64,000 bases of DNA, from contig CM045751.1 of NCBI GenBank assembly GCA_024760905.1, positions 8,218,501 through 8,282,500 of the forward strand, given 5' to 3'. The DNA is from Plotosus lineatus. Lineage: Eukaryota > Chordata > Actinopteri > Siluriformes > Plotosidae. The translations under genes were made by a program, and so were the position numbers. The notes under the pieces are model-generated. The model was not told where the DNA came from and searched no databases. It saw only the letters and a program-made list of their open reading frames with translations. Below are positions 14,349-14,686 of the stretch, piece by piece; positions within the stretch are counted from its first letter, which is position 1, and the number at the start of each line of letters is the position of its first letter.

Positions 14349-14394
<46 letters not shown>

Positions 14395-14432
14395 AAAGGA
14401 CAGGACAAAGGCTTTCTATTGAAACTCCATTT

Positions 14433-14487
14433 ATCACTACAGATCTGTTTCGAGGGGTGGTGAAACCATCCCCTCTCTTCAGGTGAT
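14433..14487 (-). ncRNA. Hammerhead ribozyme, minus strand arm (core intact)
   Basis: On the minus strand: stem I ATCAC (+ strand 14483-14487), then CTGAAGA (14476-14482), stem II GAGGGG(A)TGG closed by CCACCCCTC over a 5-nt loop, GAAA (14448-14451), stem III ACAG/CTGT with a 2-nt loop, then A (14438) and stem I partner GTGAT (14433-14437). Every invariant hammerhead core base is present (C3 U4 G5 A6 G8 A9; G12 A13 A14; A15.1-U16.1; H17), and the cleavage triplet is GUA. I derived this by hand folding. Confidence 0.78.
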
Positions 14488-14527
14488 TACAGAAGAAATT
14501 TTCTTTCTTCAGGTGATTTCTTCTGTA

Positions 14528-14582
14528 ATCACCTGAAGAGAGGGGATGGTTTCACCACCCCTCGAAACACATCTGTAGTGAT
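14528..14582 (+). ncRNA. Hammerhead ribozyme, plus strand arm
   Basis: Stem I ATCAC 14528-14532; CTGAAGA 14533-14539; stem II GAGGGG 14540-14545 with CCCCTC 14558-14563, extended by TGG/CCA; GAAA 14564-14567; stem III 14567-14576 with one C-C mismatch (14570/14573); predicted cleavage after A14577; stem I partner GTGAT 14578-14582. Core residues are intact. The short stem III, as in retrotransposon hammerheads, may need a dimer for full activity. Confidence 0.75.
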
Positions 14583-14686
14583 AAATGGAGTTTCAATAGA
14601 AAGCCTTTGTCCTGTCCTTTTGTTTATTTGCTCTACCAAAAAGTATTGAGCACTCTCCTACGGAAGGATCTACTCAGAAAATCCTC

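What the first reader, a model, noticed from the sequence alone, without database searches (positions are those of the whole stretch)
14394..14686. Foldback element carrying two opposed hammerhead ribozymes inside a fish gene
Both 106-bp arms contain the complete hammerhead core (CTGAAGA, stem II, GAAA, short stem III, UA, stem I). The minus arm pairs perfectly in stems I, II (apart from one bulge) and III; the plus arm has one stem III mismatch. A hairpin of this length with a self-cleaving ribozyme on each strand, with no reverse transcriptase, suggests a short non-autonomous retroelement related to Penelope-like elements or retrozymes. It lies in a clasp1 intron, so the + strand ribozyme should be transcribed in the pre-mRNA.
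Basis: partly seen in the sequence, partly recalled or inferred. Interest (0 to 1): 0.88.

Follow-up and report, generated by a model that had tools for sequence, protein, structure and literature searches.

The report
Mirror-image ribozyme scars of Penelope retrotransposition
Two short insertions in this animal genome (255 and about 295 bases) are each a mirror-image pair of fragments with all or part of the core sequence of a hammerhead ribozyme; they were likely left by a Penelope-type jumping gene that would have copied its RNA inwards from both sides of one target site, and the hairpin is predicted to keep the ribozymes from working where they now sit.

Summary
The foldback and both hammerhead cores are real: arms of 112 nt at 98%, core pattern on both strands. 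A second copy lies at 53786-53532 (minus strand), with a matching right arm, the same 58-nt tail and a shorter left arm. The anatomy matches published Penelope-like (PLE) insertions: head-to-head inverted pseudo-LTRs, a tail on only one, AT-rich flanks, a minimal type I hammerhead near an ATG. In both loci the two arms share locus-specific variants, so each foldback probably arose at insertion from one RNA template. I favour reverse transcription primed from both target strands at two start sites 58 nt apart; self-priming is the main rival. Copy 1 sits in an intron of a CLASP-family gene, sense to the + ribozyme, but forcing the hammerhead costs a predicted 65-80 kcal/mol against the hairpin, so cleavage there is unlikely. 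Against: no Rfam hammerhead match; the hammerhead is not the minimum-energy fold even of single arms; neither copy holds a PLE ORF; the ATG frame stops after 10 codons; genome-wide copies could not be searched. Most likely a new variant of a known kind.

The parts
14392..14499 (-). Copy 1 left arm: inverted pseudo-LTR-like fragment, without tail, outer end 2 nt from (TA)n
14438..14482 (-). Hammerhead core of left arm (CUGAAGA, stem II, GAAA, CAGAUCUG, UA); predicted cut after A14438 on the minus strand
14500..14515 (.). Spacer at the centre; contains CTTCAGGTG, an antisense piece of the hammerhead start
14516..14625 (+). Copy 1 right arm: pseudo-LTR-like fragment with hammerhead
14533..14577 (+). 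Hammerhead core of right arm, one G-to-C change in stem III; predicted cut after A14577
14546..14548 (+). ATG in stem II; its frame stops after 10 codons
14626..14683 (+). 58-nt tail, present on the right arm only; identical in copy 2
14361..14390 (.). (TA)n flank, left
14687..14731 (.). (TA)n flank, right: 13 nt, one G, then 31 nt
53532..53786 (-). Copy 2 of the insertion, on the minus strand
53710..53786 (+). Copy 2 left (inverted) arm, truncated within stem II of the hammerhead, no tail
53700..53709 (.). 10-nt perfect palindrome AGAATATTCT at the inverted junction of copy 2
53644..53688 (-). Hammerhead core of copy 2 right arm; core letters kept, stem II with two mismatches
53532..53589 (-). 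58-nt tail of copy 2

Best explanation
Each foldback is a pair of head-to-head fragments with hammerhead core sequence (complete in three of the four arms), and is likely the product of a single Penelope-type insertion in which the enzyme would have nicked both strands of an AT-rich target and reverse-transcribed one RNA species inwards from both ends. Shown: the arms, the two loci, the one-sided 58-nt tail, the common outer end of both left arms, the locus-specific variants shared by both arms, the (TA)n flanks, and nine relatives of the surrounding repeat that lack the insert. Inferred: one arm began at an upstream start site (after ...UUUUGUUU) and the other at a downstream site (after ...AGAAAAUC), which would be the two ends that define the PLE tail; the two cDNAs met at variable 5' truncation points, in copy 2 at a palindrome. 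Inferred: the hammerhead acts in the parental RNA, as a dimer through its palindromic stem III or with help from the enzyme. In the present foldback it is predicted to be inert, because each arm is the antisense of the other.
For: Second copy with a matching right arm and identical tail. Arms agree within a locus against the other locus at 2 places (AAAG[C/T]C; a 6-nt TTTTAT insert), and 0 places in the stretch shared by all four arms group left arms against right arms. Left arms of 2 of 2 copies stop within about 3 nt of the same template point, and right arms of 2 of 2 end at AGAAAATC. Published PLE anatomy: inverted pseudo-LTRs, a 31-bp tail at the 3' end of one of them, head-to-head junctions with palindromes, simple AT-rich targets (PMC3846280). 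The Anolis PLE enzyme cuts and extends both strands, starts RT at two internal sites that bound the tail, prefers AT-rich DNA, and has its hammerhead at the ORF start with the cut 26 bp past the start codon (PMC11167929); here the cut is 29 nt past an ATG in stem II. All 4 outer junctions lie within 5 nt of a TA tract of at least 13 nt; by the 14-nt criterion used for the background, 3 of 4 do, and such tracts plus 6 nt cover 1.0% of the window. Nine of nine relatives of the surrounding repeat that reach this point run through it without the insert.
Against: Only two copies, both from one window; the genome search did not complete. Neither copy holds PLE coding sequence and the ATG frame closes after 10 codons. 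No Rfam hammerhead hit, and no positive control for this subtype was run. Stem III has 8 nt, whereas PLE hammerheads are described as usually lacking it. The hammerhead as drawn is not the minimum-energy fold of a single arm in 3 of 3 (-18.0, -18.3, -11.4 against -25.4, -24.5, -17.8). In the Anolis element hammerhead mutants insert normally in vitro and no RNA reads end at the cut, so a role of the ribozyme in insertion is not supported. The tail is 58 nt, longer than the 30-40 bp reported. No target-site duplication can be read in (TA)n. The rotifer authors, whose elements also have a one-sided tail, infer self-priming from the palindromes. Arm agreement within loci could also come from gene conversion.
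Confidence: 0.62

Rival explanations
1. Self-priming: a Penelope-type insertion in which the 3' end of one strand snapped back at a palindrome and copied itself, giving the head-to-head arms from one priming event.
For: Inferred by the authors for rotifer Penelope, where a one-sided tail also occurs, from palindromes at inverted junctions (PMC3846280); copy 2 has a 10-nt palindrome at its centre; arms match within each locus.
Against: A snapback copy should run through to the end of the first strand, tail included (inference); here the left arm of 2 of 2 copies lacks exactly the tail.
Confidence: 0.22
2. A non-autonomous retrozyme-like hammerhead element of its own, carried in trans by a PLE enzyme.
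For: Stem III of 2 bp with a palindromic tetraloop resembles retrozyme hammerheads; PLEs are the proposed helpers of animal retrozymes (PMC7229834); neither copy has an ORF.
Against: No tandem direct repeats in the two loci; arm of about 110 nt is shorter than the 170-400 nt circles described; tail and inverted arms are PLE traits.
Confidence: 0.12
3. A foldback or MITE-type DNA transposon with long terminal inverted repeats, the hammerhead match being incidental.
For: Long inverted repeats, TA-rich flanks.
Against: One-sided 58-nt tail; left arms of different length; locus-specific arm sharing; core pattern above chance.
Confidence: 0.03
4. Assembly or library artefact (a hairpin read joined into the assembly).
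For: Perfect-looking palindromes are a known artefact type (recalled).
Against: Two separate loci, arms not identical, left arm stops before the tail and continues into a separate flank.
Confidence: 0.01

Closest known systems
Penelope-like elements of the Penelope/Poseidon clade (Anolis PAc, PMC11167929; Adineta vaga Pen families, PMC3846280)
   Same: Head-to-head inverted pseudo-LTRs, optional tail on one, palindromic junction (copy 2), AT-rich flanks, minimal type I hammerhead at an ATG, two candidate RT start points.
   Different: No RT/GIY-YIG ORF in either copy, nothing but a short spacer between the arms, tail of 58 nt, stem III with an 8-nt palindrome, arms cut off just upstream of the hammerhead.
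Minimal PLE hammerheads that cleave as dimers (Lunse et al. 2017; Cervera and de la Pena 2014; neither text held, known from citing passages)
   Same: Type I, very short stem III whose palindrome could pair between two molecules.
   Different: Here the two motifs are on opposite strands of one foldback, so one transcript cannot form the tandem dimer.
Non-LTR retrozymes of metazoans (PMC7229834)
   Same: Non-coding, type I hammerhead, stem III of 2 bp plus tetraloop.
   Different: Retrozymes occur as direct tandem repeats and give circular RNA of about 170-400 nt; here a single inverted pair with a tail.

Membership tests
Penelope-like element (insertion product) | Hammerhead motif in the pseudo-LTR | tested here: met
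   Core letters kept in 3 of 3 complete arms; the fourth arm is truncated. That the arm is a pseudo-LTR is inferred
Penelope-like element (insertion product) | Head-to-head inverted pseudo-LTRs | tested here: met
   2 of 2 loci
Penelope-like element (insertion product) | Optional tail at the 3' end of one arm only | tested here: met
   2 of 2 loci, 58 nt, identical; longer than the published 30-40 bp
Penelope-like element (insertion product) | AT-rich simple target | tested here: inconclusive
   4 of 4 outer junctions within 5 nt of a TA tract of 13 nt or more, but 0 of 9 empty sites show a TA tract, so the tracts may have come with or after insertion; the empty sites are AT-rich
Penelope-like element (insertion product) | Target-site duplication | tested here: inconclusive
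   Not readable within (TA)n
Penelope-like element (insertion product) | RT plus GIY-YIG ORF in the family | not testable with these tools
   Copies are 255 and about 295 bp; host genome search unanswered
Penelope-like element (insertion product) | ORF starts at the hammerhead | tested here: inconclusive
   ATG in stem II, but its frame stops after 10 codons; another frame is open without an ATG
Penelope-like element (insertion product) | Stem III lacking (usual, not universal) | tested here: not met
   8 nt CAGAUCUG
Hammerhead ribozyme | Core and three stems | tested here: met
   for both arms of copy 1; stem II weakened in copy 2
Hammerhead ribozyme | Match to a curated covariance model | tested here: not met
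   No hammerhead family
Hammerhead ribozyme | Self-cleavage | not testable with these tools
   needs an in vitro assay
Metazoan retrozyme | Tandem direct repeats with the hammerhead | tested here: not met
   2 of 2 loci inverted; apart from short matches no third locus by blastn in the window
Metazoan retrozyme | Circular RNA | not testable with these tools
   needs RNA data
Foldback/MITE DNA transposon | Symmetric terminal inverted repeats | tested here: not met
   One-sided tail in 2 of 2 loci

The most novel reading that the evidence does not exclude
A non-coding hammerhead element with a retrozyme-type palindromic stem III is inserted by the Penelope pathway itself, with one cDNA started at each of the two RT start sites on opposite target strands: the missing physical link between PLEs and animal retrozymes, and a genomic fingerprint of two-strand target-primed reverse transcription.
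Probability: 0.15. Interest if true: 0.72.

Novelty: new variant of a known kind. Interest (0 to 1): 0.42.

Why it matters
How Penelope-like elements insert is not settled. The published Anolis enzyme cuts and extends both strands in vitro, and its two start sites bound the tail (PMC11167929). Foldbacks in which one arm ends at each start site, and both arms carry the same template variants, would be the in vivo footprint of that reaction and could be counted genome-wide. The case also warns that a hammerhead match in an intron need not cut: here its own antisense is built in.

Tried and rejected
Rfam hammerhead models: no match on the whole window at gathering level, nor at E up to 10 on the foldback or on the right arms of copies 1 and 2; the left arm of copy 1 was not run alone. 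The microRNA-family matches are below their gathering scores and, I judge, hairpin-driven. More copies: none in viral contigs with four exact patterns or in prokaryote genome contigs with one; these collections are not of animal genomes, so this says nothing about the host. Within the window blastn at E up to 0.1 found, besides the two loci, two short matches, one of them within copy 1 itself. CLASP: the recalled N-terminal part found nothing; C-terminal and middle parts did. Pfam gave only hits below cut-off for three CLASP exons; the solved-structure match of one exon is CLASP2, so the paralogue (clasp1 or clasp2) is not settled. Pfam on four ORFs of other repeats found nothing at E up to 0.1. 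I did not scan the window for reverse transcriptase genes. A fixed foldback family and a DNA transposon were rejected on arm sharing and the one-sided tail. Papers asked for and not held: Cervera 2014, Lunse 2017, Craig 2021 by a recalled DOI, Arkhipova 2017. Seen: PMC11167929, the main-text section in full plus passages; PMC3846280, discussion plus passages; PMC7229834, section 15 plus passages; PMC6155905, PMC7599744, PMC7761336, PMC6466107, PMC10085705, passages only; the rest only as search listings. Searches bearing on foldback or head-to-head hammerhead elements in print: and 56, which held 0 papers; the two papers listed were not opened. This covers only the open-licence library, so I make no claim that such elements are unpublished.

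Full report
OBSERVATION. The foldback is real. Arms 14388-14499 and 14516-14627 are 112 nt long and 98% complementary with a 16-nt spacer. Both strands hold CTGAAGA, a stem II of 6 bp, an A bulge and 4 bp more, GAAA, an 8-nt stem III segment and UA, flanked by a 5-bp stem I. The core pattern occurs three times in the window against a mean of 0.03 in 100 shuffles; with stems demanded it occurs twice, both in this foldback, against 0 in 60 shuffles. A looser pattern matched 7 places, 4 of them unrelated to the foldbacks and without the stems. Rfam does not call it: no hammerhead family at gathering level in the whole window or at E up to 10 in the foldback or in the two right arms. I had no known PLE hammerhead to run as a control, so the meaning of that negative is open.

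A SECOND COPY. The third core match belongs to a second insertion on the minus strand, 53786-53532. Its right arm and tail align with those of copy 1 at 93.6% over 172 nt; the 58-nt tail is identical. Its left arm is shorter: it stops inside stem II, and the junction is the perfect palindrome AGAATATTCT. Its right-arm stem II has two mismatches in the register of copy 1, so it fails the strict descriptor.

WHAT THE TWO COPIES SAY. Aligned in one orientation, the four arms sort by locus: both arms of copy 1 have AAAGCC and lack a 6-nt TTTTAT, both arms of copy 2 have AAAGTC and carry it. No column groups left arms against right arms in the region all four share. In that region the other differences are private: one in the right arm of copy 1 (stem III), one in the right arm of copy 2 (stem II); two more in the right arm of copy 2 fall where its left arm is missing and cannot be assigned. 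So each pair was likely made from one template at insertion; gene conversion between arms is the alternative. In both copies the left arm ends within about 3 nt of the same point (...TTTTGTTT), and the right arm runs 58 nt further to ...AGAAAATC.

SITE. Copy 1 lies inside an interspersed repeat. Nine other copies of that repeat in the window reach the insertion point, and 9 of 9 run through it without the insert. None of the nine has a (TA)n tract there (one has a run of T), yet copy 1 is flanked by TA tracts on both sides, as is copy 2; all four outer junctions lie within 5 nt of a TA tract of 13 nt or more, 3 of 4 if 14 nt is asked. Whether the tracts were targets, grew from a duplication, or were added at insertion is not known, and no duplication can be read.

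GENE CONTEXT. CLASP-family exons lie on the + strand from 1882 to 29955; copy 1 falls between the exon at 13310-13447 and the next well-supported exon at 22433-22606, with a weak match (E 0.26) at 16631-16717. The query was recalled; the exon 27941-28150 matches CLASP2 chains of solved structures (E 8e-30), so clasp1 or clasp2 remains open. The + ribozyme is in the sense of the gene. Copy 2 is downstream of the last exon found.

DOES IT CUT HERE? Probably not. Taken alone, an arm prefers another fold by 6.2-7.4 kcal/mol in 3 of 3. In the transcript of the locus, forcing the hammerhead costs a predicted 65.0-79.8 kcal/mol at 7 of 7 transcript ends tested (equilibrium energies, not kinetics), and the antisense left arm is made first. 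The palindrome ACAGAUCUGU would make a 10-bp stem III between two molecules (-13.6 kcal/mol), which the plus-arm change ruins (-1.7). This fits a ribozyme meant for tandem or paired RNAs, as reported for PLE hammerheads (passages of PMC7761336 and PMC6466107; the original is not held). The Anolis PLE hammerhead cuts only with its protein present, its mutants insert normally in vitro, and no RNA reads were found ending at its cut (PMC11167929), so what the ribozyme is for remains open.

MECHANISM. Published PLE facts: inverted pseudo-LTRs with an optional tail at the 3' end of one, palindromes at head-to-head junctions, simple AT-rich targets (PMC3846280); an enzyme that cuts and extends both strands, with two internal start sites that bound the tail (PMC11167929). 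The two loci fit a reaction in which one cDNA starts at each site on opposite target strands and the two meet at truncated 5' ends. The rotifer authors infer self-priming from palindromes; that would explain matching arms, but I do not see why the left arm would then lack exactly the tail in 2 of 2 copies. Two copies cannot settle this.

MEMBERSHIP. Works like and most likely derives from a PLE. The coding part is absent from both copies, the ATG frame stops after 10 codons, an overlapping frame is open but has no ATG, and stem III is longer than usual for PLEs. It is not a retrozyme by the tandem-repeat criterion. I file it as a likely PLE-type insertion product, new variant, pending the genome search, which did not complete (ten calls, listed in Tried and rejected).

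Noticed in passing
14182-15150: Interspersed repeat (CAGGGATCCCTCGC...) around copy 1, with inverted stretches 14182-14275 / 15057-15150 of 94 nt at 71%; nine other copies in the window span the insertion point; its exact unit and any nesting were not resolved.
   Followed up: partly
8208-8966 and 62600-63359: Inverted pair, 97% over 548 nt and 95% over 221 nt, with TA tracts at 8937-8982 and 62600-62629; the ORF at 62981-63358 (-) looks by recall like a Tigger/pogo transposase start, but Pfam found nothing.
   Followed up: partly
14361-14390, 14687-14731, 53515-53531, 53791-53822: TA tracts at the outer junctions of both insertions, absent at 9 of 9 empty relatives of the copy 1 site; PLE enzymes have a telomerase-like RT domain, so untemplated repeat addition is a thought worth testing.
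   Followed up: partly
41738-41811 and 55326-55398: tRNA-model matches, perhaps heads of tRNA-derived SINEs.
   Followed up: no
14506-14515: Read on the minus strand, a second CACCTGAAGA lies 30 nt upstream of that of the left-arm hammerhead, as if the source had a short tandem duplication of the ribozyme start.
   Followed up: no
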